A stretch of 64,000 nt of DNA, from positions 23,901,221 to 23,965,220 of the forward strand of contig OX243824.1 of NCBI GenBank assembly GCA_945859605.1, in the 5' to 3' direction. The stretch comes from Lumbricus rubellus. Lineage: Eukaryota; Annelida; Clitellata; Crassiclitellata; Lumbricidae. Position numbers and translations under genes: made by a program. The notes under the pieces are model-generated. The model made no database searches and was not told the DNA's origin. It was given only the letters and a program-made list of their open reading frames with translations. Positions within the stretch are counted from its first letter, which is position 1. Each line of letters starts with the position of its first letter. Of this stretch, positions 41,679-59,647 are shown piece after piece.

Positions 41679-41680
41679 CA

Positions 41681-41892
41681 GGTACTTATGGGTTATCTAC
41701 CCCGAAGTAGAACAGGAAGAAGGCATTTGACTCATTTGACCAATATAGCCTTCAGTTTCGTCCATCTGACCAATATAGCCTTCAGTTTCGTCCATCTGAC
41801 CAATACCAGCCTAAAAAATTGAGTGCCTGCGCAGTTTGACCAATACTGTGCTTACTTTTTCATATTCAGCCAGTGCTAGCCTTACTTTTTTG
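41681..41892 (+). repeat. Polinton left terminal inverted repeat
   Basis: Starts GGTACTTATGGGTTATCTAC and is matched in reverse at 59298-59647. It contains two tandem 30-bp units (41737-41766, 41767-41796) on CAATATAGCCTTCAGTTTCG. It differs from the right copy by few substitutions, by about 30 extra bases near 41850, and by lacking the 175-bp insertion at 59454-59628. Confidence 0.92.
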
Positions 41893-42074
41893 TCTTTGGC
41901 ACACCATGAACTGTTGGTTACAAAAGTTTCATACGCTTCATCCTGTTTGCGGCTGACAGACCAGCGTTAATTGCCAAAATCCTGTTTACTGTCGGATCGG
42001 GGCCGGCCGAGTATAATTGGTAAATGCGGGCCTAATTATTATAAGTAGCCTACGAGTGGCGGACTAGGATGTTA

Positions 42075-44043
42075 GGGTCGTTTCAGATAAAGTGAACCAC
42101 TTTTCACGTTTGGCCACTTTGCTACCTTCAGAAGCATCGTATCAAGGATTCAAATACATCATTTGAAAGAGAATTTATTGCTCTATAAGGCTATGCAGTT
42201 AAACTGGACTGGTGTTAAGGTTGAGTGGATCAAATATCAATTCAAAGTTTAAATGTCCAGTGGTTCTCTTTACCTGAAGTTTCAGGCATAGTGAATCAGT
42301 TTTTTTGATAAAGTGAACCAGATCTTGCTTGTATGAAACTACACTTATCCAAATGCAAAAAGCCTAATAGTCTATATAAATCACAGCAGAATGTAAACAT
42401 TTGCACCAATTTTAATAAGTGACAATCTAAACTGAACTTAGAAGTTATCATGAGTTCATGGCATTGAGACTATATCAACCATAGATCTGGTAGCCTAATG
42501 CTGAGATTGCTCAAGAGATGGTCACATATCTATCATTCAATTGAAAAATGACTTAGACAAGTGACTTGGTCAAAGGGTGAGAATTGCCGGGGGGAGTTGG
42601 GGGGTTCAACCCCCAGTCTTTATTAGAGCCCCATGTTAAAGTATGTTTTTCATACCCCAATTTCAAGTTTATCATAGGCCAACCCCCAGTTATTTTGCCA
42701 CAATTCTCATACTGCTTGGTCATAGCTATGCAACTTTCATATCAGTAGAGCTATATCCTTTACGGATCTTATTTTGGTACCAAACAGAGAGTGACAAAAG
42801 AGCAAAAACAGAAAACGTCCAAAGTTTGATATGACCAGTGCAGCCACAATGGAATTTGTGGATTCAGGATCATCGAAGAATGCAGTCAAACATTAGGCCT
42901 ATAACAAATATTCAATGATGGTTAAGAGTGCTGATGATTCTCTACAATTTTTGATAATGTGAGAGGCCTAATGTTAGTTCTGTGAGTCAAAAGTTCTTGC
43001 ATCTATTATATAGCTTGTATAATAAATTTTTGCTGGAACTAAGGAACACTGTGTGGTTACTGTGGTACCATAATAATATCTGTAAAGTTGACATTGTCTC
43101 AATGCCTGTACTTGAACCGAGACCAAGAACTAAGGCACTGCTAAAATTGCTTGATAGAGTTGGATTATGCAGGTTTTGCATTCTTAACACCACTATTTAA
43201 GCTCGAGTCAGACACTTTTACAATCTCACAACTGGGTGCCAAATTTAGGTTTCAATGTTGCCTAGGTCTATTTTTATTGTTGTCTTTTTCAGTGACAATT
43301 TTGCTGGTCTTTCTTTCTCCTTCGTTCTGATGTCTTGTTCCATGATGGTGGAGTCTTCCCAGTGTGGTGCAAATAAATTTATAGCTAAACTTCAAAATGG
43401 GATGTGCTTATTTTTCGATAATAAAATTATTAGTAGGCCTAATAATTTTATTATCGAAATATAAACAAATCCCTTTTTATCATTAATTTGCTTACAATAT
43501 GGGCTTATTTTTATGTAGTCATAAGTAATATCCAATTTAGGCCTATCTGTAATTCATTTACCAGGCTATAGCCTATCAGATAAAGTGAACCATTGGTTCA
43601 CTTTAGTTGGACTTTTGTGGTTCACTTTACCAATGCGTGCAAGCAAAGTGGACCGCATGATTAAACGCGTGCAAAAAGCTCGCGGAATCGTTCAGTCAGA
43701 CATTTAAACTGCTTTTTTTTCATCACCATCCCAGAATTCCTACAGAGAAAAAGTTCCTGCATAGGTTAATGCATTTAGCCGTGAAACCGACTTTTGTTAT
43801 ACCCCATCTAAAAAGTAGGACACTTCAATTTTGGGAAGTTTCGTTGGCACCCGACATTTCTCTGTCGACCATAACATGAAGTTGCTAGGTATGTCTCTAA
43901 TAACCCGCTGACTTGGTAGCCAAGAGATAGTACAATCTAAAAATAGCCTCCGCGTTAATTTGACATTAATAGTATGGTGCACAGACAATTTCTAGCAGAA
44001 TTGGTTCACTCAACCTGATGGTTCACTTTATCTGAAACGACCC
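42075..44043. mobile_element. Nested TA-flanked DNA transposon in Polinton left arm
   Basis: Terminal inverted repeat GGGTCGTTTCAGATAAAGTG (extending through AACCA), flanked by TA at 42073-42074 and 44044-44045. The motif AAAGTGAACCA or its complement recurs inside (about 42310, 43577-43600 as a palindrome, 43619), as subterminal transposase-binding repeats would. No transposase ORF is visible, so this is a 1969-bp non-autonomous element. A family-A MITE is inserted at 42578. Confidence 0.88.
42578..42709 (+). mobile_element. Short MITE (family A), copy 4, inside the nested element
   Basis: TGAGAATTGCCGGGG to CCACAATTCTCA, the same family as 1745, 34561 and 36541. Its position inside the TA element inside the Polinton makes it the latest of the three insertions. 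Confidence 0.8.
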
Positions 44044-44045
44044 TA

Positions 44046-45120
44046 TGTTTGCAATAAGGCAGAGAGGCTGAGACTAATTGCTCATACATCCATCCATTCA
44101 TCTAACCATCATCGTCGTTGTCATCATCATCATCGTCGTCGTCGTTGGATGATGCACTTATATGTAGGTTCAGAAATTAACACCAATAAAAATAGCAATA
44201 TGTCAATGTCATAGTGAGACACGAATCGCTTTGATGCCGTCGGTGAAAAAGTCTCGTCTAATTAATCCCACACCCTAACCAATTATAACGACCCGCTGTT
44301 TTTGCCGACGTTCACACCCACCCACCCATCCAGTCACCCACCCTGTCATCTATCCATCCATCCATCTTACCATCCATCCGTTTTCTTTCTGTATAGTCTG
44401 TTCTCGATGCTTTTGAAATAAAAAACACAGCGCGTTGTCTGTATGAATTTCGTTCTGAAACAGGCAACCATCGAGCGTTTGGCTGCTATTTCAGAACGTG
44501 AATAATATAATAGAGCGAGACATCTAGCGGCTGACAGTGTTATAATCATCTTCGTTGGGAACGCGTTTTCTTTGAATGTGTCTGTTGGCGTAAAGTTGAG
44601 CAGGCGGTTTTTCCGACAATTCGTGATGATGAATGTAGGCCTATACCACACCAAGTAAGTGATTTTTTCGTCAACTCACATTAGTGAATGTGCCTGCGTT
44701 GGTGATTAACAGGCGATTTATTTCAGTATCACGCGGCTGTGAATGTGTCTGAGTATTGAAACTTAGGATTTCCCATCAGATCTATTTCGCAGTTACTCCC
44801 ACGTATGACGTCATATCTATATAATAACTAGGTGAGACCGAGAGATTTCGTGTCACGTTTTTAGTTTTCGTGTCCCATGCGTGACACTTCGGTCACATAG
44901 CGTGACACAATTCTGGCTGTTTTACATTTGATCGCGTTTTAAAATTTCAACGATCGCAGCGAGACAAAATCCTAGCTGTTTTGCATTTGGTCACGTTTTA
45001 AGATTTCAACGCTTGCAACGTGACCAAATCCTAGCTTTTTTCGACGCTTTGCTAAACACGTTCTGGAACGTCTCTTTCTCAGCTTCGTCTATAAACACGA
45101 CATATTTTTTCATAATCGTC
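44046..45120. other. Polinton left-arm non-coding region with repeats
   Basis: No supported ORF. A TCATCG-rich tract lies at about 44108-44146 and a CCATCC-rich stretch at about 44318-44382. At about 44905-45040 two copies of a 65-70 bp unit carry CGTTTTAARATTTCAACG and AATCCTAGCTGTTTT. Confidence 0.6.
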
Positions 45121-45990
45121 TCACAATGTCACCAAGTCTTCAGTATCAATCCACGAGTTGAACGAGTCTGGGTAGCCCAACCACTTCACGAGACATTTCT
45201 TCCCGCGTTTCCTAATCACTTTTTCGATTCTAAATATTTCTTGAGTTGTTTTCTGTAGCTCCTGCTCGTAAAAAGAGCCTTGTATTTCCTCACCCGCAGA
45301 ATCAGTAATCTTGTAAGTTGGCGGATCTGTGTATTGAACCTGAGATACTGTGAAGACTTCCTCCGTCCATCTCGGCAAGTAACCCTTGTCAAAAATATTC
45401 TTCTTCCTAGTTATTCTGACTCGATCGCCGACTGAAAACTTTGGTGTAATAGGCTCTGAAATCTCATCGCCGTATAAATTCATAAATACAGTCTTTTCGT
45501 TCACCTTCATACTAGCCTTCGCGGGGGTCATTTTAATGGAGGAATGTCTCGTGTCATTATAATTACTAACCATTTCGTCTAATACATCGATATATCTTCT
45601 AGTTGAATTAGCCGTAAAGTACTTGAACATTTTATCTTTCATCGAACGCACCCATCTTTCTACGATACAACTTTTGCCCTCGTTCTCGGTAGAATACAAC
45701 TCGACTAAATTCTTCACATTTTTATTATAAAATTCTTTCCCTTTGTCGCACCAAACTTTGACTGGCTGTCGACCACCCCCGAGTATCTTCACGAACCCAT
45801 CGGCTGTAGACTTCCCACTCTTGTCATGTAATGGAACGATCCACCCATACTTGGAAAACACATCTATAACGGTCAATAGAAATTTCACCCCATCATTATC
45901 TCTAGCGAAAGCCTGCATGTCGATTAGATCAGCCGCCCAAATCTGGTCAATCCCCCCAACACGGACCCGTCTCGTTCTAAAATTTCTCAC
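45121..45990 (-). CDS. Polinton retroviral-type integrase with chromodomain
   Basis: The integrase performs end-joining of Polinton DNA into host DNA. The rve core has catalytic Asp21 (WAADLID), Asp82 (WCDKGKEF) and Glu111 (IVERW). An SH3-like segment follows (FSVGDRVRI, about 186-194), then GSFYEQELQ. The C-terminal chromodomain, about 250-289, has IEKVIRKRGKKCLVKWLGYP and FNSW. The spacing between the second Asp and Glu is 28 residues, shorter than the retroviral 35. The interval 45121-45990 starts at a GTG. The frame is open upstream to 46083, and that extension (residues LKWTNQLANELHKPV) is integrase-like, yet it has no ATG before Met25, past the first catalytic residue. It overlaps the 3' end of the PLA2 ORF in the -1 frame at a seven-A run, so initiation is unresolved. 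No N-terminal HHCC zinc module is visible. Confidence 0.88.
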   Translation of the reverse strand: MRNFRTRRVRVGGIDQIWAADLIDMQAFARDNDGVKFLLTVIDVFSKYGWIVPLHDKSGKSTADGFVKILGGGRQPVKVWCDKGKEFYNKNVKNLVELYSTENEGKSCIVERWVRSMKDKMFKYFTANSTRRYIDVLDEMVSNYNDTRHSSIKMTPAKASMKVNEKTVFMNLYGDEISEPITPKFSVGDRVRITRKKNIFDKGYLPRWTEEVFTVSQVQYTDPPTYKITDSAGEEIQGSFYEQELQKTTQEIFRIEKVIRKRGKKCLVKWLGYPDSFNSWIDTEDLVTL

Positions 45991-46049
45991 TACTGGTTTG
46001 TGTAATTCATTCGCTAATTGATTAGTCCATTTCAGGTCCTGCTGTAATT

Positions 46050-46574
46050 CTAGGCTTTTTTTAAACCCAAACCTAGGCTTGTTTTAGCTGACAAGATGGG
46101 TTTGACTATCGCCCTCTCTACGCGTTCCCGCAGACTTGGATTAGGTATATTATTCAATTGGTTTATCATTGCTCTATCGGCAACATTCCTAGAAGCCGTA
46201 TCAGTGTGTTGATTGTATGCCAGGTCGTGAATATATGCCGCGCTATCTACCCTGTTTATAGGTTTGCTCCAATCTTTGGGGGTTTCGTTGGGATTCAGAC
46301 GCAAATCTAGTCTAGTACCGGGACCAGTAAACTGAAGGCCTGGCAAATGTACCTCACCAGCAAACTTGGCCCAAGGTAATTTAATGTTGCTAGTGGCAGC
46401 GTTCAGCGAACTAACTAGATCCCCACCTTGCGCAACAGCGGGCGCCTTCACGAATTGAGTTTTTGTTTTTCCGCATACGACGCAAACACCTCTGAGCATC
46501 GATATCCCATTATTAGCCACGGAGTTCTGCACATCTCTCGTCTCGGTCTGTTCTTTACATTTTACGCAATACAT
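46050..46574 (-). CDS. Zinc-ribbon (DUF5679-like) plus phospholipase A2-like protein
   Basis: A 174-residue protein. The N-terminus is a zinc ribbon with Cys3-x2-Cys6 and Cys31-x2-Cys34 (YCVKCK, VCVVCGK), like DUF5679 domains of virus-like elements. Residues about 75-140 resemble the phospholipase A2 domain of parvovirus VP1-unique regions: a calcium-loop-like FTGPGTRLD (82-90), then the His116-Asp117 pair in AAYIHDLAYN. Such domains help virions cross endosomal membranes, and PLA2-like domains are known in adintoviruses. The ATG start is preceded by an A-rich box and faces the ATPase gene across 29 bp. The gene ends in GLGLKKA directly after a seven-A run, and the -1 frame there leads into integrase-like sequence. 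Catalytic activity is inferred from two motifs only. Confidence 0.75.
   Translation of the reverse strand: MYCVKCKEQTETRDVQNSVANNGISMLRGVCVVCGKTKTQFVKAPAVAQGGDLVSSLNAATSNIKLPWAKFAGEVHLPGLQFTGPGTRLDLRLNPNETPKDWSKPINRVDSAAYIHDLAYNQHTDTASRNVADRAMINQLNNIPNPSLRERVERAIVKPILSAKTSLGLGLKKA
46056..46062 (-). promoter_or_regulatory. Possible -1 slippery site (A AAA AAA) between PLA2 and integrase frames
   Basis: A seven-A run, placed in the PLA2 frame as A AAA AAA, lies two codons before the TAG stop. A -1 slip would enter the integrase frame, which has no AUG of its own upstream of the catalytic core. I have not identified a downstream pseudoknot. A one-base homopolymer deletion or sequencing error would look the same. 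Confidence 0.4.
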
Positions 46575-46603
46575 TTCGTTTTTTAATAATATATATTTTT
46601 AAA
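46575..46603. promoter_or_regulatory. Bidirectional AT-rich promoter between PLA2 and ATPase
   Basis: The 29 bp between divergent ATGs is almost pure A/T (TTTTTTAATAATATATATTT). It contains TATA-like sequence for both directions and ends TTTTTAAAATG on the plus side. The spacing leaves very short leaders. Confidence 0.55.
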
Positions 46604-47392
46604 ATGGAGATTAGAGATATGAGTTGGGGCACAGCGCTCTCGAAAAGATTCAATAATCCGTTGTTACCCAAAAGCATACGTGGTTTGATAGTTGGGAAAT
46701 CGGCGTGTGGAAAAACAACGCTTCTTCTCAATCTTTTACTCAGGCCGGACTGGTTGGATTATAATAACTTGCAGGTATTCGGTACTTGTCTGTTTCAACC
46801 GGAATATCGCATTATTAAAAAAGCCTACGAAGAAAAATTACCGAAAGAAGCGATCGTTCGGCTGTTCGAGCACCGAGATGAAATCGTGGGCCTAAATGCG
46901 TCACCAGACTTCGTTATGGAAGAAATGGCAAAAAACTTAGAAGCTAAATCCGATATAATTGCCAAGTTCTTTGAGAGCGCCGACGATGTACCGGACCCGA
47001 GAGATCTGAGCGCTGAAAAGAAGAACCTGATGATATTCGATGATCTTCAATTGGAAAAACAAAACAAATGTGAAACGTATTACAATCGGGGGAGGCATAG
47101 TAATGTAGATTGTTTTTACCTCGCCCAGAATTATTTCAAATTACCGCGCCAAACAATCAGAGAAAATGCAAACTTTATTTGCCTGTTCAAACAAGACCTG
47201 AAAAATTGTAATCATATTTACAACGATCACGTGAGTACAGACATGTCGAAAGATGAATTTAGAAAACTATGCAAAACAGTATGGGGGCAACCTCATGGAT
47301 TCGTGGTTTTAGACCTGACTAGCGACAAGTACAATGGTAAATACCGATGCGGACTCGACGAATTTTATATAATCGAGGATCCGCCCTTGTAA
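46604..47392 (+). CDS. Genome-packaging ATPase (FtsK/HerA, A32-like)
   Basis: A 262-residue P-loop ATPase, the motor that fills the Polinton virion with DNA. Walker A is GKSACGKT at 31-38, preceded by RGLIV. Walker B is NLMIFDDL at about 141-148. A sensor-like YLAQNY with Asn176 follows, and the C-terminal part has VSTDMSKDEF and WGQPHGFVVLD. Length fits Polinton and virophage packaging ATPases. The ATG is preceded by TATATTTTTAAA. The gene heads the plus-strand capsid block, and the next start is 21 bp downstream. Confidence 0.93.
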   Translation: MEIRDMSWGTALSKRFNNPLLPKSIRGLIVGKSACGKTTLLLNLLLRPDWLDYNNLQVFGTCLFQPEYRIIKKAYEEKLPKEAIVRLFEHRDEIVGLNASPDFVMEEMAKNLEAKSDIIAKFFESADDVPDPRDLSAEKKNLMIFDDLQLEKQNKCETYYNRGRHSNVDCFYLAQNYFKLPRQTIRENANFICLFKQDLKNCNHIYNDHVSTDMSKDEFRKLCKTVWGQPHGFVVLDLTSDKYNGKYRCGLDEFYIIEDPPL

Positions 47393-47413
47393 AAATTGTA
47401 TTGTATAGTAAAA

Positions 47414-48208
47414 ATGGAATCATCGCTTCTCAAACAGATATCGGAAAACACGGAAAAGACGGCCTGCAATACGGAACCAAAAACATCATTTTCCATTTTT
47501 CTCAGCGAAAAGAGCACGCGAATCAGAACGAAGTTTAATCCACTACTCGAACTGGAGAAGAATAAGAAATATGAAATGGCCTTAGTTGCCCTCGAGACGT
47601 ACTATTCTTTTCCTAATATCGATGCGACAAACAACGGCTTCAGTTATTCGCCGAATTCCGACACACAGTGGATAAACATTCAAGTTCCAGAGGGTTGCTA
47701 TGAAATAACGGATATCAACGAATATATACAGAGGGCCATGAAGGGGAATGGGCATTACGACGGAGTAAATGGAGAATACTGTATCTCAATAACACCAAAC
47801 ACCAATACGCTGAGGTCTGTGGTAAATATAGCAGCAGGTTATATGGTTGACTTTACGCCAAAGAATTCGATCGGAAAGGTTCTAGGGTTTGACAAATGGA
47901 TCTATTCGGCGGGATACAACGAATCGGAGGACTTGGTAAATATAATGAGTGTAAGCAGCCTACGAGTGACCAGCGACATTATCGGGTCTTCGTACACTAA
48001 CGGAACATCGGAAAACGTGATATATTCTTTTTTCCCAAACGTAGGCCCGGGTTACAAGATTATCGAAGTGCCGCATAATTTGATATATCTCCCGATTTTG
48101 CTATCTACAATTTCGACGATGGAAACGAGGCTCACAGACCAACACGGGAACCTACTAAATCTTCGAGGTGAAGAATTGGCGATTCGATTTCACATCAGAG
48201 AAGTTTGA
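47414..48208 (+). CDS. Probable minor capsid (penton-type) protein
   Basis: 264 residues from the ATG at 47414, which follows AGTAAAA; an upstream TTG in frame is not preferred. It contains VALETYYSFPNIDATNNGF, EGCYEITDINEYIQ, a long beta-rich middle and a C-terminal GPGYKIIEVPHNLIYLPI followed by LTDQHGNLLNLRGEELAIR. This architecture recurs in Polintons of many invertebrates at the position between ATPase and capsid genes. I infer the single jelly-roll penton from size, beta-rich composition and locus. No catalytic motif is visible. Confidence 0.6.
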   Translation: MESSLLKQISENTEKTACNTEPKTSFSIFLSEKSTRIRTKFNPLLELEKNKKYEMALVALETYYSFPNIDATNNGFSYSPNSDTQWINIQVPEGCYEITDINEYIQRAMKGNGHYDGVNGEYCISITPNTNTLRSVVNIAAGYMVDFTPKNSIGKVLGFDKWIYSAGYNESEDLVNIMSVSSLRVTSDIIGSSYTNGTSENVIYSFFPNVGPGYKIIEVPHNLIYLPILLSTISTMETRLTDQHGNLLNLRGEELAIRFHIREV

Positions 48209-48232
48209 AAGTTTTTGTAATTTATTATTAAA

Positions 48233-48829
48233 ATGAATCGTTACACGGGCGTAAAAGTTAATATTTCAGAAGCGCAACAAGACAAAATTAAAAGATCACT
48301 TCAAGCGGGGAGCGGCGTGAGTATCAAACTATCGCACGATGATTTGAATGGCGAACACGTTTTGGCTCTCACCCAGGCGCAAATCAATAAAATGGCAGCA
48401 GCCTACCAAAAAGGAACTGGCATGATTATTAAAATGAGTAAAACGCAATTGGAGAACAACAAGAAAGTCGAAGGTGGATTCATAGGCGCTATACTTCCGT
48501 TTCTAGCGACAGCGGGACGGTTCCTTCTGTCTAATGGACTGCCAAGTTTGGCGATGGGGGCACTAAGTGGTCTCGGCTCCGCGGCAACTACTAAGATTGT
48601 AGACAAAATCAGCGGTTCGGGTGTAATGTATGTCAAGAGAGGCGACATAGCGTGCAAAATAAGACCAGCCGGATCTGGTTTGTACTTGTCCCCGTGGCAA
48701 AAAGGTAGCTCGATAACGGCATCCGGGCTGTACATGAAAACAGGGTCGGGCTATGCGAGGGGCGAAGGACTTTTGTTGGGCCCCAACTCTCCGTTTCGAA
48801 ACATTCCGATTCTCGGCATGATATTATAA
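48233..48829 (+). CDS. Conserved Polinton glycine-rich/hydrophobic virion-type protein
   Basis: 198 residues. The N-terminal third is polar (NISEAQQDKIKRSLQAG, then ALTQAQINKMAAAYQKG). A hydrophobic, glycine-rich segment at about 83-120 (FIGAILPFLATAGRFLL) follows. The C-terminus is built from glycine-rich SGSG/GSGL repeats and ends GPNSPFRNIPILGMIL. It is preceded by TTTATTATTAAAATG. The hydrophobic stretch and place in the capsid block suggest a membrane-active or core virion component. I do not recognise a characterised family. Confidence 0.6.
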   Translation: MNRYTGVKVNISEAQQDKIKRSLQAGSGVSIKLSHDDLNGEHVLALTQAQINKMAAAYQKGTGMIIKMSKTQLENNKKVEGGFIGAILPFLATAGRFLLSNGLPSLAMGALSGLGSAATTKIVDKISGSGVMYVKRGDIACKIRPAGSGLYLSPWQKGSSITASGLYMKTGSGYARGEGLLLGPNSPFRNIPILGMIL

Positions 48830-48845
48830 ACTATTCTATTATAAA

Positions 48846-49244
48846 ATGTCGAGACCAATACACAAATTTGGAACTAAACCAACTAGACCGGTAGAGGTTA
48901 GAACGCAGCCCGTTTCAGTCTTTTGGAAGATTACGAGCGGTGTTACTCGCGCCCCAGTAAGACAACTAGGAGGTCTGCAATGGGAGATTTTTGCGCAAAA
49001 TGATATCACGATACAACCAAAGACAGCAAATACGCTAAGGCTTGGACTAGGTGTAGAAATGGCGGCAGGACTTTGCCTCGTTTCCCTCAGACAGAGTATC
49101 AAGGAACGGCGCTGCAGCCTACTAGACGGAGTGATTTCAGAAGATGTGGTTGATGATATCATAGTTTCCATTCAAAACAACTCCGATTCGGCAGTAACGA
49201 TAAACGAAGGAGATTCGCTATGCTGCGTAAATTACCAACGGTAA
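48846..49244 (+). CDS. dUTPase-fold protein with degenerate active site
   Basis: 132 residues. The order of strands matches trimeric dUTPases: LGGLQWEIFAQNDITIQP in place of the AGYDLYA motif, LRLGLGVEMAAGLCLVSLR for the PTG...PPG...R segment, DGVISEDVVDDIIVSIQN in place of the GVIDxDYxGE motif, and INEGDSLCCV in place of the KKGDRIAQL strand. The catalytic Asp of motif 3 is replaced by Ser (GVIS) and the P-R-S-G motif is absent, so hydrolysis of dUTP is unlikely. Non-enzymatic dUTPase-derived proteins are known in adenoviruses. Its place among capsid genes suggests a structural or adaptor role. The ATG is preceded by CTATTATAAA. Confidence 0.6.
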   Translation: MSRPIHKFGTKPTRPVEVRTQPVSVFWKITSGVTRAPVRQLGGLQWEIFAQNDITIQPKTANTLRLGLGVEMAAGLCLVSLRQSIKERRCSLLDGVISEDVVDDIIVSIQNNSDSAVTINEGDSLCCVNYQR

Positions 49245-49272
49245 AAAATATATATTGCTAATAAATAAAAGA

Positions 49273-49971: not shown

Positions 49972-50091
49972 ACCTGCAGAGTTTTGTAGACCTATGTCGC
50001 TATGTCTGAAAATACGTCTAACTTGTGTTTTTACACATGTCGAAAAACATGTAGAAAAACACGTCTAGAAACATTAAATTTTTTATTAAAA

Positions 50092-50994: not shown

Positions 50995-50995
50995 A

Positions 50996-51454: not shown

Positions 51455-51479
51455 AAAATATTATCGCGTAGTAGTAAAA

Positions 51480-52769
51480 ATGCAATCATCTGATATTCTG
51501 AGATTTACCGAACAACCATTGAGCGATGAAAGCGTCGAACGCTACGAATGGTACGAGTATGAGCCGATATCGGGGGCGAATCTAAACACCTCCGGCGAGA
51601 TTAGAATAAATATCGAACTTCAAGATCTATTTTGTCATCCGGCGGAATCTTACCTGCTGTTCGAGGGTAGATTGACGAAGGCGGACAACACCTTCTACGT
51701 CAATGCCGATGAAGCAACCCTTACGAATAATGGGCTCATGCATCTTTTCAGTCAAATTTCGTATTCCCTGTCGAATCAGGAAATTGAATCGTTATTTTAC
51801 CCAGGTCAAGCAACGACGATGCTCGGATTACTCAAATACCCGAATGATTTTCAACTAGCTCAAGGTCTGAATCAGTTGTGGTACAAGGACAGCGGAGCGA
51901 CGGCTGCTATCGCGAATAATCAAGGTTTCGCCGTGAGACAGTCGTATATAATTCAAAAACCAAATGCCAAAGGTACTTTTAGCTTTGTAGTTCCATTGAA
52001 GCATATTTTCGGATTTTGCGATGATTACGACAAGGTTGTTTTTGGTGTGAAACATACGCTAACTCTGGTTCGTAAAGCCGATGATGACGCAATTTTTAGA
52101 CTCGCCGCCGCGGGCGCAGGGAAAGTTAGGCTGGATAAAATCTCATGGTTCATGCCGCACGTTATTCCCGCGGATATGGAGAAGATGCAATTGTACAAAA
52201 CTATCGAATCGAAAGCGTCGCTGCCAGTTGCGTACAGAGCCCGTCAATGCGATACCACCTCCGTCGCACAGTCGACTAATTTTAGCTGGAGACTTAGCGT
52301 CAAGACATTACCCGAGAAACCTAGGTACATCATCTTGGGTTTTCAAACCGACAAAAGCGGCGATCAAGTACACAATCCATCCGTTTTCAATCATTGCGAT
52401 CTGAAGAACATGTTCGTGATGATGAACCAGGACCGATACCCAGTTGTCGACTATAATCTATCATTTCCGAATCAACAATTCGCGCGGGTGTACCGAGCAG
52501 CAGCCGCGTTCAGTGAAAAATACTATGGAATGGACGAACTAATGACACAATGCAATATCACGCCCTTGGACTTCAAAGATCTGTTTCCGATTATGGTGTT
52601 TGACGTGAGCAAGCAATCCGAGCGTCTGAAGTCATCGGTGGTTGATATCCAGATCAAAGGCACGTTTAATACAGCGCCGCCAGCTAATACGGAAGCGTAC
52701 GCAATGGTGATTTCAGACAAGTTACTGAGGTTTCAATCGGACGGCCAGAAAATGAGCGTGGTATATTGA
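51480..52769 (+). CDS. Major capsid protein (double jelly-roll)
   Basis: 429 residues. Starts at an ATG after AGTAGTAAAA. Beta-rich throughout: EIRINIELQDLFCHPAESYL early, LFSQISYSLSNQEIESLF, VPLKHIFGFCDDYDKVVFG in the middle, and a second half with LPEKPRYIILGFQTDKSG, LKNMFVMMNQDRYPVVDYN, DLFPIMVFDVSKQ and VDIQIKGTF. This order fits the two-jelly-roll capsid protein of Polintons, virophages and adintoviruses, which forms hexon-like trimers in an icosahedral shell. It is the last gene of the plus-strand block and converges with the fibre genes. The ORF is intact. Confidence 0.82.
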   Translation: MQSSDILRFTEQPLSDESVERYEWYEYEPISGANLNTSGEIRINIELQDLFCHPAESYLLFEGRLTKADNTFYVNADEATLTNNGLMHLFSQISYSLSNQEIESLFYPGQATTMLGLLKYPNDFQLAQGLNQLWYKDSGATAAIANNQGFAVRQSYIIQKPNAKGTFSFVVPLKHIFGFCDDYDKVVFGVKHTLTLVRKADDDAIFRLAAAGAGKVRLDKISWFMPHVIPADMEKMQLYKTIESKASLPVAYRARQCDTTSVAQSTNFSWRLSVKTLPEKPRYIILGFQTDKSGDQVHNPSVFNHCDLKNMFVMMNQDRYPVVDYNLSFPNQQFARVYRAAAAFSEKYYGMDELMTQCNITPLDFKDLFPIMVFDVSKQSERLKSSVVDIQIKGTFNTAPPANTEAYAMVISDKLLRFQSDGQKMSVVY

Positions 52770-52825
52770 AGTTCATGATAGAATGGTCGATGACAGTTCT
52801 GAATAATGAGCCTTTGAGACTTGTA

Positions 52826-52859
52826 GATACCTATCGTGTGTTCTCGGACGATAGGTATC
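52826..52859. terminator. Perfect 12-bp hairpin between convergent gene blocks
   Basis: GATACCTATCGT (52826-52837) and ACGATAGGTATC (52848-52859) pair perfectly around a 10-nt loop. The hairpin lies 57 bp after the capsid stop and 18 bp before the end of the fibre gene on the other strand, so it could mark transcript ends for both blocks. Confidence 0.6.
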
Positions 52860-52876
52860 AACGGAAAAATACGGAC

Positions 52877-53764
52877 TTAGTATAGAAACTCGACCTGCAA
52901 TCCACATCCAGCCACAATAAGAAGGGAGGTAGCCGGTGAACTGTCGAATTCGGCAGAATATACTCTCATACCGACTTTTTCGCTGGCGACTAAAGACATG
53001 GCGGCGGTTGGTAATACGAGCGATACTCTGCTGTCGCCTGTTTGGCCGCCCGCCATGTATCCAACAAGTTCGTTATTATGTAACTCGGATTTGAAATACG
53101 CAACCCTGACTATTTTTTTTACCACATCATCACTCCGCACATTTCCGATCATGAAATTCGCGAATCCGCTAAGTCGATATACGCCCGTACGAGGAATAGT
53201 TATTACCCCTTCAGCCGCCGTATACGCCGAATCCGTATTTATAACGACGGTCGTTAATTGGTCGTGCTTCACATAGGCGCCTGAGAATCCGCCAGTCAAG
53301 CTTGCGGGTGCGCCCGATGTTGCCGACTCTTTCAACGCGCAAATAGCCGGTCCGGTTGTAGGTCTCCAATTCGGGGACAATGCTGGTGCCGCTGTTATAG
53401 CTCCAGCCGTTCCTTCAAACCTATATGTAATGCCGCTCGTCGTATTTCTCACTAGATTGCCTGGAGATACCCTCATACCCGAAACGTAATCTCTAATACC
53501 GGTAGGCTCAGCGCTATTAGTGATTTTATCGGCGACTAGGGCAATAGCTTGTCCCCAACTTAGCGCTTCATCCATTCCCGCATCCGGATTATTTGTTACA
53601 GGCAGGCCTTTGATGCAGTTGCCATTCATATTTAGATTCCCAGTCGCCGGTTTTGCTCCATCTACCCTTAGAAAAGTACTATTTACTTGGGGCAGCGTAA
53701 CGCCCCCTGCAATTATTCTTTGAGTAGATCCTGAATCTGTATGTCCAAATTTATCAACAGGCAT
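52877..53764 (-). CDS. Fibre-like protein 1 (shared anchor, distinct head)
   Basis: 295 residues. The N-terminus MPVDKFGHTDSGSTQR and the segment FLRVDGAKPATGNLNMNG are nearly identical to the neighbouring paralogue at 53789-54538. The FLRxDGAxPATGxLNMxG element is of the type seen in trimeric tail-fibre shafts. The head (about 120-295) differs and is beta-rich: GVITIPRTGVYRLSGFANF, KKIVRVAYF and a final GCGLQVEFLY, consistent with a C1q/TNF-like jelly roll. I infer a virion spike for host attachment. The ATG follows TATATTCAAA. A duplication of an ancestral fibre gene is the simplest origin. Confidence 0.65.
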   Translation of the reverse strand: MPVDKFGHTDSGSTQRIIAGGVTLPQVNSTFLRVDGAKPATGNLNMNGNCIKGLPVTNNPDAGMDEALSWGQAIALVADKITNSAEPTGIRDYVSGMRVSPGNLVRNTTSGITYRFEGTAGAITAAPALSPNWRPTTGPAICALKESATSGAPASLTGGFSGAYVKHDQLTTVVINTDSAYTAAEGVITIPRTGVYRLSGFANFMIGNVRSDDVVKKIVRVAYFKSELHNNELVGYMAGGQTGDSRVSLVLPTAAMSLVASEKVGMRVYSAEFDSSPATSLLIVAGCGLQVEFLY

Positions 53765-53788
53765 TTTGAATATAATAATTTTTATTAA

Positions 53789-54538
53789 TTAGGGCCGTAA
53801 GAATACCGCTGAAAAGTCCCTACACAAAATGCGCGTAGCGATGGATGAAAAAGCGTGTATGTTGAGGTAATCGAAATCGTCTAGAAAAACTACGCCACTA
53901 CCGGTTGAATGGTTATACGAACCTCCCGTAGCCCCTCCGCCCGCAATTTGCATGTACGACGCCCCATTTCTATACAGGTGGACGGTGCCATACGCGGTAT
54001 TACTATTGTTACAAAATTCTATGTACACCGAAACGAGATAGTACCCGGCTTTACTGGGGAAGAAAGAAGTCGTTCCGATACCCTGTTCAATACCGTGTAT
54101 TGCGGTACCGCATCTTATTACGTCAAAAGTAACTGCAGTGTGTGTTCTAGCGATTATAGCCTGTTGAGTTGAACTGTAAGCGCTAACCGCGGGTCCTACC
54201 ACTGTCGCCACTTTCGAAGTAAGTTGTTCATCGACGTATTTCTTATTCGTCAAATGATTATCGTCGGTCGGGACGTCGTCGTGATTCTGCAGTAAATCTA
54301 TTACTTGTCCCCGGCTCACTGCCTCATCTATTCCCGCTTCCGGAGTATTCGCTGTATTCGCTGTATTCGTTGTAGGCAGACCTCTAATAGTATGACCACT
54401 CATATTTAGATCTCCGGTCGCGGGGTTTGCTCCATCTAGCCTTAGAAAAGTACTATTTACTTGACTTTCAGTAACTCCTCCAGCAATTACTCTTTGCGTA
54501 GATCCCGAATCTGTATGTCCAAATTTATCAACAGGCAT
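53789..54538 (-). CDS. Fibre-like protein 2 (shared anchor, C1q/TNF-like head)
   Basis: 249 residues, just upstream of fibre 1 on the same strand. Shares the first roughly 57 residues with it (MPVDKFGHTDSGSTQR, FLRLDGANPATGDLNMSG). An NTANTANT repeat and a shaft with LTNKKYVDEQLTSK, a phage-tail-fibre-type motif, come next. The head at about 130-249 has the C1q/TNF pattern FFPSKAGYYLVSVYIEF, GTVHLYRNGASY and LDDFDYLNIHAF, and ends AVFLRP. The two heads are unrelated in detail, which suggests modular exchange of receptor-binding parts. The ATG follows AGATGTAAAAA. Confidence 0.65.
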   Translation of the reverse strand: MPVDKFGHTDSGSTQRVIAGGVTESQVNSTFLRLDGANPATGDLNMSGHTIRGLPTTNTANTANTPEAGIDEAVSRGQVIDLLQNHDDVPTDDNHLTNKKYVDEQLTSKVATVVGPAVSAYSSTQQAIIARTHTAVTFDVIRCGTAIHGIEQGIGTTSFFPSKAGYYLVSVYIEFCNNSNTAYGTVHLYRNGASYMQIAGGGATGGSYNHSTGSGVVFLDDFDYLNIHAFSSIATRILCRDFSAVFLRP

Positions 54539-54596
54539 TTTTTACATCTGAATATAATTTTCAATGCAGGCTGTTTATAACTTCTTGAAAACTCAC

Positions 54597-54995
54597 TCAA
54601 TCTTTACATGTTTTTTTCAGGACGTGCAGGCATAAATGACCGCAAAACACTTCGTTGTCGGGCTGTACGCGTTCGCTGTTGTAGTACACAGGACTCTGTA
54701 AATACTTTACCAGTTCTGTAGGAGGGGGCAGGCCATAGCTGTCGAAATATATTTTATCCTTGCCGTTCTTCAAAAAAGCGACCCAGTGCGAGCCGGTTCC
54801 ATTAGAATCGTCTAGATTCAATATACCACATTCATTCCGGCTAGGTTTCTTCGGCAGCTCGTCTCTGAGAAATACTCCCCGGAAATTAGGGATATTGAGC
54901 TTCTTAGCAGCATCTAGTAGTTCAAAATTCGTCAGCGGATGATTCGGAAGGACTACGCCTTCGACATGTATATTTTTCACAGTTGTATAGCTCAT
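54597..54995 (-). CDS. Adenain-like cysteine protease
   Basis: 132 residues, a compact maturation protease of the Ulp1/adenain type. Catalytic His70 is in GSHWVAFLKNG, Asp85 in YFDSYGLPPP, Gln111 in ERVQPD and the nucleophile Cys118 in FCGHLCLHVL. Spacing and order fit the family. In Polintons and adenoviruses this enzyme trims capsid and minor virion proteins. The C-terminus is short (KKTCKD). The ATG follows GAAATATTAAA. Confidence 0.9.
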   Translation of the reverse strand: MSYTTVKNIHVEGVVLPNHPLTNFELLDAAKKLNIPNFRGVFLRDELPKKPSRNECGILNLDDSNGTGSHWVAFLKNGKDKIYFDSYGLPPPTELVKYLQSPVYYNSERVQPDNEVFCGHLCLHVLKKTCKD

Positions 54996-55017
54996 TTTAA
55001 TATTTCATCTAGTTGTT

Positions 55018-55329
55018 TCACAAACTAACGAGCTTTCGAGCTTCTACGCAGGCGAGATAATATTTATGTCTGCAATTTTTGCATTCATTCGCCTTTCCAT
55101 CTTTTTGAAATCGATTGTTGTCGTATCCCGATATGTTCTGATTTACCTTACACCGACTGCAAACTTTTGTGTCTTTTGTCTCCCTATTTTCCTGTCTTGC
55201 GTATTTGTGTGCAAGCTCCTTTACTTTGGCATTTTTACAAAGTTTGCAGCTCGGATAGCTTCCGTTCTTTTGCGTATGATCTTTGTGAAATTCGCCCAAG
55301 CTTTTTTCTATTTTGCATTTGGTACACAC
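55018..55329 (-). CDS. Double zinc-ribbon protein, no ATG in frame
   Basis: About 103 residues with two CxxC-CxxC units: CTKCK...SCKLCK near the start and CSRCK...ECKNCRHKYY near the end. Such ribbons occur in DNA-binding or endonuclease-VII-associated viral proteins. The interval begins at a GTG. The reading frame is open back to a TAA about 18 nt upstream and contains no ATG. An ATG with good position (at about 55345) lies in a different frame, and the two frames meet at a six-A run (55330-55335). Either a one-base loss disrupted the gene, the base is miscalled, or initiation is unusual. Function is unknown. Confidence 0.6.
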   Translation of the reverse strand: MCTKCKIEKSLGEFHKDHTQKNGSYPSCKLCKNAKVKELAHKYARQENRETKDTKVCSRCKVNQNISGYDNNRFQKDGKANECKNCRHKYYLACVEARKLVSL

Positions 55330-55335
55330 TTTTTT
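55330..55335 (-). other. Poly-A run where the zinc-ribbon frame and its upstream ATG diverge
   Basis: The ATG-led frame upstream is displaced by one base from the zinc-ribbon frame at this six-A run. The direction is the same as at the seven-A run near the integrase (46056-46062). Confidence 0.5.
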
Positions 55336-55362
55336 ACCGCATCCATATTATATTAGTGTAAA

Positions 55363-58300
55363 TTATTCTTTATTTTGTTTAGTTTTCAGCGTGTAGTGTC
55401 CATAGGCTAGGGTATGGATCCCGTCGTCCATTATTACTCTTTTGTCGTCGTCGGCAGACAGAGCTATTTTATTTACTTCTTCGGTGTAAATTTCATGACG
55501 ATAGGATCGAATGACGTTCATCGCTCTCGACTGTTGTCTTTTCGTAAACACGCAGTCTTTGTAATCTGCATGAGTGATTGATTTCTTGACGACGTTCTTT
55601 TTCACTCCTTTACATTTCTTGTAGTCTTCACCCGCCATCTTGTAAGAGTACAACTTGGATCGCAGTCCGACAAATTCTTCGATTTGTTTTCCCGCGGCTT
55701 CGTCCTTGAACATACCAACCACTTTTTTATTAACGCCGGATTCTATACCTGACGGATGATCTCTCGGATAGTCTGAAGTATCGAACATACTTTGGACGTC
55801 GGGGGAAATATCTTTGTAGAAGTCTTCCGTTTTAATTTCATACGCCAAAGAATCGGTATCTGTGATTAATAGCTTGGCCCTATCTCCGTACTTGGCCTTG
55901 ATGTAATTATAATGAAAATCATACATGAGCGTCTTACTGGTGTCTAATATACACATCCCTAGATATATCGGCTTGTTGTAAAACAACTTGGTCTTTTTCA
56001 TGTGAACAGCGATGAGGTTTTCATCGAAAATCGTTCGTCTGTCGTAATTGGTTTTCGCGACTAGCTTGATGGCTTCCTTCTCATCACTCACCAATCGTAT
56101 GTCAACTCGATTCTCGATAGCTTCCATTGTTTTACCGAAAACGCTATTATTCATCAGCTTGAAAAAGTCTTTCTCAAAATCGTTCGTAGCTTTCGTTCTC
56201 AGGTTGGTATTCAGATCGATATACTTTTTCAGCCAGGCACTTTCCATGAATTTTATTCCCCGATGTATTTTTACGATTTTCAATCCGAGACGTTCGTACA
56301 ATTTTAAATTTCCGTAATGAACGACGTACTTCTTTTTATCGTTCAAGTTTGGAATGAGTTTCGCCACATTTGATCCCGTGGGTTTTACACTCTCGGGCGC
56401 TAGAGGATAATCATTGTGCAGGTCGTGTAATTCCTTTGGATATTCTAAGTCGACTTCTAACACACATCCCACTCCATCTCGTTCGGTAATGTTTCTCCAA
56501 TCATTCAATTCGTCATCGTTCATCCATTCAAACCCATGAGTTGGTAGCGGCTTGCTCATCGCCCATCCGTACAAGTTGTTCGCGTCCAAGTATGGAATGA
56601 ATACTGAATGCTGGGTGGGATTGAAAGCTTCCCCCATGTACTCGTTGTTCGCTTTCGCGTATCGATGCGAAATCGTGCTGACGCCTCCTCGTATTCCTTG
56701 CTTGATCATCAGTAACATATCGTAGTCGCTCAACAACTCCAACTCTACGCCAGTCGTCTTCAACGCCGCATCCCAAGCAAGTCCAGGCGAAGTATAATAC
56801 CACGTAGGATCTAGGTTGTAGTTCTTCATACAGACGTCTCTAAAGTTTTCAAATACATCCGCTAATAATAGAACATCCGATAAATTGTACAAGTCGTGAT
56901 ATTGACGTAATGTTTTGCATTCAAATTTGTCCCATACCGTTTTCGCGTGCGCGTAATCTTTTTCACTAATACCCGAATCGTTTAGTTTTGAATAGAAGGC
57001 ATGTTTCGGCGGCAATTCGGTTTCGTTTAATCTTTCAACACCATCGACGTAATCATACGGGTAAACGCCTTTTCTGAGTAAAAGATCCAGCTTCTCACCT
57101 TCAAAAAATTTCCCTAAATTCTTGCACTGGTCTTTCTGAAGATTTTTCGATAACGCGTCGAGACTCGAGGGCATGAATCTAAAACTATCGATGAAACGTA
57201 ATTCGCGCTTGACTTCTCGCTCTTTTCCATCTTTGTCGACAAATTTATCGACGACGACCTCTCTGCTGAATGAGATATACTTTTCTTCGTTGCAGGGAAT
57301 GCATTTGATTTTCTCGCCGTGTTCGCCCCGTAATTTCTTGATAAATAAATGGCTGTCATAACCTGTCAAATTGTGAAATATGACAGGGAAGAACTTGGGG
57401 ACTTTGTATTTCAGATTACAAAGGTTGTGAGCGGCACCTCTAAATTTTCCAGTCAAATGGCAGTGATCTCGAACTCGATCTTCACGCAACTCTCCCCCAC
57501 AGATATGGCAGTTGACAGCTTCATCATAACATTTCTGTTCAGTTTTGCCGAATATCATCTTCTTGGGGAATTTGAACTCGTTGTATATTCGTTTTACATT
57601 TTCTTCGATAGAGTCTATGAATAACTGAGCAACATCATCGTCTTCGTTTTCAGCTGTAAACCTCACCGGCTCTTGGGAATAAACATCATCGTCGAAGCAT
57701 TTCAAATGATAACAAAACGAGCTGGGCGTATGTTTTTGATACTTGTTGGTGTAAGACGTGCTAGGAACGGGTTGACATGTACCGATAGGTTTGATGAACG
57801 ATTCAAAGTCGGCAAAATACAAAAACGGTACACGCATCTTTCTATAATAATGTGTAAAACTTAGCATAGTCCCAGGTTCTGGAAGTTCTATTCGTTGGGC
57901 GTCCTGCTGCGAACAGTACTCAGTATGTTTGTGAAGCGATTCTACTTTTCTGTAACCGATTAAACATCTTCTGCAATAGTGCATTGAATTATGGGATTTT
58001 TCTGTTCGCAGCGCTAGCAATCTATTAAAATTCTTGATCCAGCAATAATGCTTCTTTTCCCCATCAGAAATGAGTAATAGATCCACGCACCTATCATTCT
58101 CATGCTTTGATATATATAGTGGGAATACATTCACATCTTTCTCGTAACCAAAAACATTAACACTAATATTATTATTTCTTTCAAACTTACCTATCACATT
58201 AGCATCCGCTGCTACTGGGAATTCAATACCGGACCAATTGAGTTCCTCAGACTGTCTAATTAATTCTTTCGTAATTCTTTCTGTATTTTTGTCGACGGGG

Positions 58301-59217
58301 TTTACAGCTCGCGTTACACACCACTTGAAGCATTCATCGTCTTCGTTCTTCATATTAATAATAGCCTTTTTATTCGCTAAATAATCTGGAAGTGGAATAT
58401 AAGAACTTCCTTTCAATGGTTTATATACCACTGTATCGATATCCAACTTCAAAACGGTTTTGAATCTCCAATTACTCCCCCGCATTTGAAAACTGGCCAT
58501 ACTCTCCTTAATTTTATCCGCTGCGTTGGTATATATTTCCCGAACATCGGTTGCTTCTAAAATAATATCACTCTTTGATTTGAAATTAGGCTCGGCCGTT
58601 ACTACTTCGCCGGTTTTCATATCTACTTTCTCCATTACGCACATGAGATCGAGTTGAACTTTTACCCCTCGATTTTTCGCTAGCAGCCTAACTACCTGCG
58701 GTCTTACAGCCTTGAGAAAAGTTGCAACATCGATCCTGCCGTCGCCATCGATCGTGTATCTTTTTGTAAACCCTTTGATAGCCGTCGCAGTCTCTCGAAG
58801 TTTGAACCTATGAATGGGCGGTTTTATTTGCGGAGGTAACTGACTAATCTCGCTAGTCAGCCAATCCGAAAAAACTATTTTATTTTTCCCCGGATGCAAA
58901 AATTTCCAAGTAGTAGTCAAGAATGCCGTAAGTTCCGCTTTTGCTAATCTCGAGTATCCTCGCACACCTCTCTTTTTTGCAATTTCCCGCAATTCTCGCA
59001 CAGTGGCGGGAGTATGCGCTGGTGTTTTGTTGACCTGAGCCCGAGCGCCTAGTCGATCTCCCTGCGATATGAACGCTATGAGTTCCGCTTTTCGCAAACT
59101 CGAGTATCCTCTTTGTCCTCTCTGTTTAGGAATTTGTCGTAATTCTTTCAGATTATACGATGAGTAGTCCATTTTATATTGGGATATCTTGTCTTTAGAC
59201 CGAGTAATATAATCCAT
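55363..59217 (-). CDS. Protein-primed family B DNA polymerase
   Basis: 1284 residues, intact. Two SAP-like modules open the protein (LKELRQIPKQRGQRGYS at about 24-50 and REIAKKRGVRGYSRLAKAEL at about 77-100). The exonuclease has ExoI Asp470/Glu472 (YFADFESF), ExoII NLTGYDSH (616-623) and ExoIII with Asp781 (NLSDVLLLADV). A zinc/HNH-like insert lies at about 570-600 (CHICGG, RDHCHLTGKFRGAAH). The polymerase has GIRGGVS (841-847), motif A YLDANNLYGWAM (Asp878), motif B KLMNNSVFGKT (1020-1030) and motif C TDTDS (Asp1120 to Ser1123). This replicates linear Polinton DNA from a terminal protein. It is the largest gene, reading inward from the right TIR. The ATG is preceded by ACTGAAAAA. Confidence 0.96.
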   Translation of the reverse strand: MDYITRSKDKISQYKMDYSSYNLKELRQIPKQRGQRGYSSLRKAELIAFISQGDRLGARAQVNKTPAHTPATVRELREIAKKRGVRGYSRLAKAELTAFLTTTWKFLHPGKNKIVFSDWLTSEISQLPPQIKPPIHRFKLRETATAIKGFTKRYTIDGDGRIDVATFLKAVRPQVVRLLAKNRGVKVQLDLMCVMEKVDMKTGEVVTAEPNFKSKSDIILEATDVREIYTNAADKIKESMASFQMRGSNWRFKTVLKLDIDTVVYKPLKGSSYIPLPDYLANKKAIINMKNEDDECFKWCVTRAVNPVDKNTERITKELIRQSEELNWSGIEFPVAADANVIGKFERNNNISVNVFGYEKDVNVFPLYISKHENDRCVDLLLISDGEKKHYCWIKNFNRLLALRTEKSHNSMHYCRRCLIGYRKVESLHKHTEYCSQQDAQRIELPEPGTMLSFTHYYRKMRVPFLYFADFESFIKPIGTCQPVPSTSYTNKYQKHTPSSFCYHLKCFDDDVYSQEPVRFTAENEDDDVAQLFIDSIEENVKRIYNEFKFPKKMIFGKTEQKCYDEAVNCHICGGELREDRVRDHCHLTGKFRGAAHNLCNLKYKVPKFFPVIFHNLTGYDSHLFIKKLRGEHGEKIKCIPCNEEKYISFSREVVVDKFVDKDGKEREVKRELRFIDSFRFMPSSLDALSKNLQKDQCKNLGKFFEGEKLDLLLRKGVYPYDYVDGVERLNETELPPKHAFYSKLNDSGISEKDYAHAKTVWDKFECKTLRQYHDLYNLSDVLLLADVFENFRDVCMKNYNLDPTWYYTSPGLAWDAALKTTGVELELLSDYDMLLMIKQGIRGGVSTISHRYAKANNEYMGEAFNPTQHSVFIPYLDANNLYGWAMSKPLPTHGFEWMNDDELNDWRNITERDGVGCVLEVDLEYPKELHDLHNDYPLAPESVKPTGSNVAKLIPNLNDKKKYVVHYGNLKLYERLGLKIVKIHRGIKFMESAWLKKYIDLNTNLRTKATNDFEKDFFKLMNNSVFGKTMEAIENRVDIRLVSDEKEAIKLVAKTNYDRRTIFDENLIAVHMKKTKLFYNKPIYLGMCILDTSKTLMYDFHYNYIKAKYGDRAKLLITDTDSLAYEIKTEDFYKDISPDVQSMFDTSDYPRDHPSGIESGVNKKVVGMFKDEAAGKQIEEFVGLRSKLYSYKMAGEDYKKCKGVKKNVVKKSITHADYKDCVFTKRQQSRAMNVIRSYRHEIYTEEVNKIALSADDDKRVIMDDGIHTLAYGHYTLKTKQNKE

Positions 59218-59297
59218 TTTTTCAGTTATTTTATATACGCCAGAGAAATTTTTTTTACTTTTTTACTTTTTTACTTTTTTACGCCGGACGTCTAATT

Positions 59298-59647
59298 AAA
59301 AAAGTAAGGCTAGTATTGGCCAAACTGCGCGGGCACTCAATTTTTTAGGCTGGTATTGGTCAGATGGACGAAACTGAAGGCTATATTGGTCAGATGGACG
59401 AAACTGAAGGCTATATTGGTCAAATGAGTCAAATGCCTTCTTCCTGTTCTACTCCCCGATTTATTTTTTTATTTTTTCAGCGTTGTCATTCCACGTCTTT
59501 TCCGTGAGGGTCGGTTAGGGCTCAGGTTAGGCATCGTGAGGGTCGGTTAGGGTTAGTGTTAGGGTTAGTTTAGCCATTAGAAACTGGTCGATTCATGGCA
59601 AAAGACACTGTGTCAAAATAAATCGGGGTAGATAACCCATAAGTACC
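59298..59647 (-). repeat. Polinton right terminal inverted repeat, with insertion
   Basis: Reverse complement of 41681-41892 with only scattered substitutions, ending ACCCATAAGTACC. It includes the 30-bp tandem pair (TGAAGGCTATATTGGTCAGA) and is split by the 175-bp insertion at 59454-59628. A (ACTTTTTT)n tract at about 59255-59281 separates it from the polymerase start. Confidence 0.92.
59454..59628. mobile_element. 175-bp insertion with CCCCGATTTATTTT termini and TTAGGG-like core
   Basis: It is absent from the left TIR, where the flanking bases are nearly contiguous. Its ends are perfect 14-bp inverted repeats (CCCCGATTTATTTT and AAAATAAATCGGGG). The middle (about 59510-59570) contains GGTTAGGGTTAG and further GGTTAGG words. 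No clear target duplication is visible. It may be a MITE or a DNA-repair insert. Confidence 0.7.

What the first reader, a model, noticed from the sequence alone, without database searches (positions are those of the whole stretch)
41679..59647. Young, nearly intact adintovirus-like Polinton with a complete virion gene set
All hallmark genes (integrase, ATPase, protease, major capsid, probable penton, protein-primed polymerase B) are present with catalytic motifs in place. The long TIRs are nearly identical and a 6-bp target duplication GACCTA remains. This suggests a recent insertion and possible virion formation.
Basis: partly seen in the sequence, partly recalled or inferred. Interest (0 to 1): 0.85.

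Follow-up and report, generated by a model that had tools for sequence, protein, structure and literature searches.

The report
Polinton with swappable fibre heads
A virus-like DNA element inserted in an animal genome belongs to a family of many near-identical copies that differ most in the tip of one of two fibre-like proteins, which may be the part that recognises cells.

Summary
The Polinton is real, but its ends and target duplication were misread. Sister copies show that it spans 41706-59453 (AGTAGAAC...GTTCTACT) with target duplication CCCCGA. The outer 25-bp repeat and GACCTA belong to a 213-bp MITE into which it inserted; 39 other MITE copies cross the site uninterrupted. The virion gene set is present, but this copy is not pristine: a 1,969-bp repeat sits in its left arm and its protease ends 12 codons early. 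The genome holds at least 127 copies. The genes tested (capsid, protease, phospholipase, integrase) show purifying selection. (1) Two neighbouring fibre-like genes share a 16-residue N-terminal anchor. One slot carries one head type; the slot beside the capsid gene carries three head classes (9, 14 and 7 of 30 copies), close to unlinked from capsid ancestry; the window's head has a predicted TNF/C1q fold. (2) The integrase lacks a start codon and overlaps a zinc-ribbon/phospholipase-A2 gene in the -1 frame at a T TTA AAA slippery site kept in 45 of 53 copies; relatives encode both as one protein. A Polinton of known kind; the switching fibre slot and the frameshift fusion look like new variants. 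Virions, cell binding and frameshifting are inferred, not shown.

The parts
41706..59453 (.). Polinton element, corrected ends AGTAGAAC...GTTCTACT
41700..41705 (.). target duplication CCCCGA, left
59454..59459 (.). target duplication CCCCGA, right
41706..41860 (+). left terminal inverted repeat (155 bp)
59299..59453 (-). right terminal inverted repeat (155 bp)
41681..41705 (.). left piece of the 213-bp MITE that the Polinton entered (not part of the element)
59454..59647 (.). right piece of the same MITE
42075..44043 (.). insertion of a high-copy repeat, absent from sisters L002 and L003
45121..46083 (-). integrase (rve + chromodomain) open frame; no ATG before the first catalytic Asp
46050..46574 (-). 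zinc ribbon (DUF5679) + phospholipase A2-like protein; overlaps integrase, which lies in its -1 frame
46059..46065 (-). slippery heptamer T TTA AAA in the overlap (followed by AAA GCC TAG)
46604..47392 (+). packaging ATPase (Pox_A32-like)
47414..48208 (+). penton (minor capsid) protein by predicted fold
48233..48829 (+). small glycine-rich ORF, function unknown
48846..49244 (+). dUTPase-fold protein
49273..49971 (+). ORF with hydrophobic stretch, function unknown
50002..50994 (+). ORF kept in sister copies, function unknown
50996..51454 (+). small basic ORF kept in sister copies, function unknown
51480..52769 (+). major capsid protein (double jelly roll)
52877..53764 (-). fibre 2 (variable slot), head class A, TNF/C1q-like head by predicted fold
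53789..54538 (-). fibre 1 (constant slot), same N-terminal anchor
54597..54995 (-). adenain-like cysteine protease; ends 12 codons earlier than in sisters
55363..59217 (-). protein-primed DNA polymerase B candidate with N-terminal Rho_N repeats
   Evidence: polymerase motifs by eye

Best explanation
The locus is an endogenous adintovirus-like Polinton that inserted into a MITE. It is one of at least 127 copies left by a lineage that was, until recently, replicating with functional capsid genes and recombining. Inferred working: the penton carries two trimeric fibres through their shared MPVDKFG anchor. Fibre 1 is constant. Fibre 2 is a cassette slot in which recombination in the anchor and shaft exchanges unrelated or distantly related heads, so that the population keeps several cell-binding specificities on one capsid. 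The phospholipase-A2 protein is made alone from its own start, and a fraction of ribosomes slip by -1 at T TTA AAA to make a phospholipase-integrase fusion, the simplest way in which the start-less integrase could be translated. Shown: sequence anatomy, copies, head census, open frames, selection on the genes tested, predicted folds. Inferred: virions, receptor binding, actual frameshifting, timing.
Against: No transcript, protein or particle data. dN/dS comes from summed pairwise counts, not a tree model, and ranking by protein score lowered it (0.05 against 0.165). The PLA2 and integrase rows are copies chosen through the capsid ranking, and 34 of the 53 junctions are among the best DNA matches to the window's own junction, which favours likeness to it. 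The capsid tree is weak (1 of 27 inner branches starred) and class A shows slight clustering (26 of 500 shuffles as low). Fibre 1 and fibre 2 distances are weakly correlated (r 0.23, p 0.018). 8 of 53 junctions lack the canonical heptamer: 4 have one more T in place of an A, 2 have fewer T, one has a different frame offset (L112), and one has the frames in register but with a stop at the joint (L073). In L072, L117, L133 and L143 the phospholipase stop after the stretch is missing. The fold downstream of the slippery site is unexceptional (z -1.5; 12 of 200 shuffles as stable). In the fibre-2 model the first 88 residues have pLDDT under 50.
Confidence: 0.72

Rival explanations
1. The family spreads only inside the genome as a self-synthesising transposon; capsid and fibre genes are passengers or act inside the cell.
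For: At least 127 copies in one genome; no relative confirmed in IMG/VR with single-protein queries for integrase and fibre 1.
Against: Capsid, protease and PLA2 are under purifying selection; fibre anchor is kept; a database protein from a JGI contig is 93% identical to fibre 1, though it may come from host DNA.
Confidence: 0.2
2. The fibre-2 variety arose by gene conversion between resident genomic copies without selection for diversity.
For: Mosaic blocks inside fibre 2; protease N-termini and PLA2-integrase haplotypes are also mixed.
Against: The three heads are old (A and C 56-63% identical, B without significant match to A or C; a database protein is 89% identical to a C head), while capsid dS is about 0.1; three classes at 9:14:7 is not what a rare import would give.
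Confidence: 0.3
3. The integrase is made another way: transcriptional slippage in the A run, an internal or non-AUG start, or a spliced mRNA; the overlap is no frameshift site.
For: The stretch is an A7 run; no strong stimulatory structure; one relative's integrase protein starts with Met at the junction (P0104).
Against: T TTA AAA in 45 of 53 copies; third-position variation in both frames; relatives have the in-frame fusion with a linker at the same point.
Confidence: 0.3
4. One reading: element 41679-59647 with target duplication GACCTA.
For: A 25-bp inverted repeat and two GACCTA copies are there.
Against: Sister copies end at the base matching 41706; 39 other MITE copies lack the insert.
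Confidence: 0.02

Closest known systems
Adintoviridae / Eupolintoviridae and animal Polintons (Mavericks)
   Same: Gene set, rve integrase with C-terminal chromodomain, DJR capsid, penton, adenain-like protease, AGT...ACT ends, 6-bp duplications, purifying selection on core genes (compare PMC8097293, passages read; PMC11071296, passages and section 16 read).
   Different: Those passages describe no paired fibres with exchanging heads and no phospholipase-integrase frame overlap; PMC11071296 proposes -1 slippery sites near the 3' end of Penton and for Hexon-Adenain instead.
Fibre proteins of protist Polinton-like viruses (PMC12220804, passages read)
   Same: Modular fibres with cell-binding domains, discoidin among them; two fibres per penton suggested.
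   Different: Protist hosts; the passages report long repeat proteins, often with an endosialidase chaperone, not one slot with alternative TNF/C1q-like heads in near-identical copies.
Adenoviruses with two fibre genes (recalled; avian fibres binding in pairs are mentioned)
   Same: Two fibres on a common penton anchor would be the same plan.
   Different: Head fold and anchor expected to differ; recalled, not tested.
Retroviral and insertion-sequence -1 frameshift fusions (recalled)
   Same: X XXY YYZ heptamer placing an integrase or transposase behind an upstream frame.
   Different: Upstream partner is a phospholipase A2; DNA virus-like element.

Membership tests
Polinton/Maverick | terminal inverted repeats with AGT...ACT ends | tested here: met
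Polinton/Maverick | 6-bp target duplication | tested here: met
   CCCCGA in the window; 8 of 8 sister pairs with both ends, out of 10 pairs examined; empty MITE sites
Polinton/Maverick | rve integrase | tested here: met
   PF00665 E 2.6e-5, below the Pfam cut-off; 4757 homologs at E <= 0.001, nearly all of the 120 listed with PF00665
Polinton/Maverick | protein-primed family B polymerase | tested here: inconclusive
   1284-aa ORF with motifs read by eye; Pfam gives Rho_N and weak matches only; no meaningful PDB match
Polinton/Maverick | DJR major capsid and penton | tested here: met
Polinton/Maverick | adenain-like protease | tested here: met
   ASFV S273R E 7.5e-4, adenain only E 0.97; no Pfam match; shortened in this copy
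Adintoviridae/Eupolintoviridae | integrase with C-terminal chromodomain | tested here: met
   PF00385 E 7.9e-5, just below cut-off
[quoted passage not shown]
   definition read; no reference compared
-1 ribosomal frameshift site | slippery heptamer in the overlap | tested here: met
   45 of 53 copies
-1 ribosomal frameshift site | downstream stimulatory structure | tested here: inconclusive
   z -1.5
-1 ribosomal frameshift site | fusion product observed | not testable with these tools
   no expression data
Trimeric viral fibre | head with a fold found in trimeric ligands | tested here: met
Trimeric viral fibre | anchoring to penton | not testable with these tools
   inferred from the constant N-terminus

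The most novel reading that the evidence does not exclude
The genome holds a stored, recombining population of one animal DNA virus in which a dedicated slot next to the capsid gene is kept polymorphic for receptor-binding heads by selection, while the entry enzyme (phospholipase A2) and the integrase are delivered as one frameshift-made protein coupling membrane escape to integration.
Probability: 0.25. Interest if true: 0.82.

Novelty: new variant of a known kind. Interest (0 to 1): 0.62.

Why it matters
Virions of Mavericks have not been observed (PMC8097293, abstract start), and what would let such elements enter cells is unclear. A pair of fibre-like genes with a constant and a switching slot gives a concrete, testable entry apparatus, and a large set of natural variants in one genome. 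The start-less, selected integrase behind a slippery site ties a putative entry enzyme to integration. The locus also shows how a Polinton nested in a MITE can be given wrong ends.

Tried and rejected
Boundaries 41679-59647 with GACCTA: rejected. My own first reading of the 169 bp as an insertion into the right terminal repeat: rejected for the same reason. Dating by the 5 terminal-repeat mismatches: dropped, since all lie in the inner 33 bp. IMG/VR scans with integrase and fibre 1 confirmed no relative. Phmmer of both fibres against PDB: nothing. Covariation in the frameshift region: not attempted, too conserved. Host identity: not established; a laminin G exon at 10794-11261 and a Hydra protein among the integrase relatives suggest an animal. 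Copy number: the capture-recapture figure of about 390 assumes independent lists, which does not hold; and a draft count of 128 became 127 after one search showed that one junction may belong to a listed capsid copy. A draft statement that one copy has both frames in an open register was wrong and was removed. Of 12 copies picked for an unranked capsid test, 3 gave no full capsid match in the fetched stretch and were left out. Of 20 junction stretches, 2 lacked the motif. Literature: searches 'adintovirus', 'polinton' with 'fiber', 'frameshift', 'phospholipase A2', 'receptor binding', a six-term fibre/TNF search, a Maverick copy-number search and a frameshift-integrase-transposon search. In these listings, and in passages of PMC11071296, PMC8097293, PMC12220804, PMC3671162 and PMC12451622, I saw neither the switching slot nor the PLA2-integrase overlap; a term look-up in PMC11071308 found none of the terms. 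Starrett 2021 and Koonin 2024 are not held and were not read; no paper was read whole.
Full report
1. What is there. Between 41706 and 59453 there is a 17,748-bp element with ends AGTAGAAC...GTTCTACT. In other copies the terminal-repeat homology begins for the most part at the bases matching 41704-41706 or further in. In 10 sister pairs examined, 8 had both ends, and all 8 were flanked by a perfect 6-bp duplication. In the window CCCCGA stands directly on both sides. Joining only the two flanks gives a sequence that 39 other places in the genome match at 97-100% through the joint, over some 213 bp with 33-bp inverted ends: the Polinton sits in one end of a MITE, and GACCTA flanks that MITE.

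2. State of this copy. The terminal repeats are 155 bp; the outer 122 bp are identical and 5 mismatches lie in the inner 33 bp. The 8 sister pairs have 0, 0, 6, 3, 3, 0, 6 and 0 mismatches. A 1,969-bp high-copy repeat (42075-44043) is missing in sisters L002 and L003. The protease frame is 132 codons; the 13 other copies with the same start have 144. Six further copies did not match that start; five of them have a different N-terminus, and all six reach the longer C-terminus. The other large ORFs are open. So: a recent insertion in general terms, but no longer pristine.

4. Copies and selection. The capsid search listed 98 places at 97-100% identity, 93 without a stop; only the best candidates are scored, so this is a lower bound. 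Of the 40 best junction matches 10 fall at listed capsid places and 30 do not; one of the 30 lies 16.7 kb from a listed capsid and may be the same copy. At least 127 copies therefore exist. Capsid dN/dS was 0.05 for 29 copies that had been ranked by protein score. Of 12 copies picked by DNA similarity elsewhere, 9 gave a full capsid match in the fetched stretch, all 9 open, and dN/dS was 0.165 with the window included. Ranking therefore lowered the first figure, but purifying selection remains. Protease 0.10 (13 copies), fibre 1 0.25 (18), fibre 2 within classes 0.36-0.42 (9, 6 and 3 copies).

5. The fibre pair. Two ORFs between capsid and protease begin with the same MPVDKFGHTDSGSTQR; the first 48 nt agree at 46-47 of 48 between the two genes in the 3 copies compared. 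The slot next to the protease has one head type (matched in 29 of 30 copies, some broken; the thirtieth showed none in the stretch held). The slot next to the capsid has three: A in 9, B in 14, C in 7 of 30. A and C heads are 56-63% identical; B has no significant match to A or C and is 35-37% identical to the fibre 1 head; a database protein is 89% identical to a C head. Capsid distances average about 2.5%. Head class changes 13 times on the capsid tree, as in shuffles (13.4; 104 of 200 as low), although the tree is weakly resolved and class A is slightly clustered (26 of 500). Capsid and fibre distances are uncorrelated in 16 copies (r -0.19 and 0.05), while the two fibres correlate weakly (r 0.23, p 0.018). 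Copies c0 and c3 are 92-97% identical for about 225 nt and then 37-60%. The nearest capsid relative of the window (0.39% different) has another phospholipase-integrase haplotype (92.8%). I read this as recombination.

7. Phospholipase and integrase. The integrase frame opens at 46083 and has no Met before its first catalytic Asp, in the window and in the 17 sisters in which that residue could be placed. The phospholipase frame overlaps it and stops just after T TTA AAA AAA GCC. The canonical stretch is present in the window, 14 of 18 sisters (2 more of the 20 fetched lacked the motif) and 30 of 34 further copies: 45 of 53. The 34 are among the best DNA matches to the window's junction and so lean towards it. 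I saw no open in-register fusion; in L073 the frames are in register with a stop at the joint, in L112 the offset differs. In four sisters the phospholipase stop is missing. Variable columns concentrate at third positions in both frames (phospholipase 10, 3, 33 of 73 each; integrase 8, 10, 38 of about 105 each; 19 rows), consistent with both being translated and selected. The 60 nt after the stretch are less variable than what follows (4/60 against 54/260, p 0.009), although the predicted RNA fold is ordinary. Four of 120 listed relatives carry integrase and phospholipase domains in one ORF, with the linker at the same point. Programmed -1 frameshifting is the simplest reading; transcriptional slippage is the main alternative.

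8. Comparison. By its features this is a Polinton, probably in the adintovirus group (the OTU-like domain and capsid clade were not tested). Strong purifying selection on core genes is known for fish Mavericks (PMC8097293, passages). Modular fibres are known in protist Polinton-like viruses (PMC12220804, passages). Slippery sites were proposed for other adintovirus genes (PMC11071296, section 16). The switching slot and the phospholipase-integrase overlap were not seen in the listings and passages named under Tried and rejected.

Noticed in passing
18466-19017 (+) and 21737-22288 (-): Two near-identical 183-aa open frames in inverted orientation; no Pfam match for the one tested.
   Followed up: partly
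48846-49244: dUTPase-fold protein in the virion module (E 4.2e-5); from recall, motif residues of the active enzyme seem replaced.
   Followed up: no
41681-41705 and 59454-59647: 213-bp MITE family with 33-bp inverted ends and at least 39 other copies.
   Followed up: yes
L026:2822-3205 (copy c17), and copies c10 (L049) and c24 (L033): Extra 121-128-aa ORF between capsid and fibre 2 in 3 of 30 copies; the L026 ORF has a sub-threshold NUMOD1 match.
   Followed up: partly
L042, L044, L045, L048, L054: A different N-terminal version of the protease in these 5 of 20 copies, another mosaic.
   Followed up: no
50996-51454: Small basic ORF with a sub-threshold match to a scorpion antimicrobial peptide model (E 2.4e-4); could be a membrane-active core protein.
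   Followed up: no
52877-54538: Database proteins from JGI contigs close to both fibres: P0046 93% to fibre 1, P0001 and P0002 with C-type heads.
   Followed up: partly
10794-11261: Laminin G-like exon on the minus strand, pointing to an animal host.
   Followed up: no
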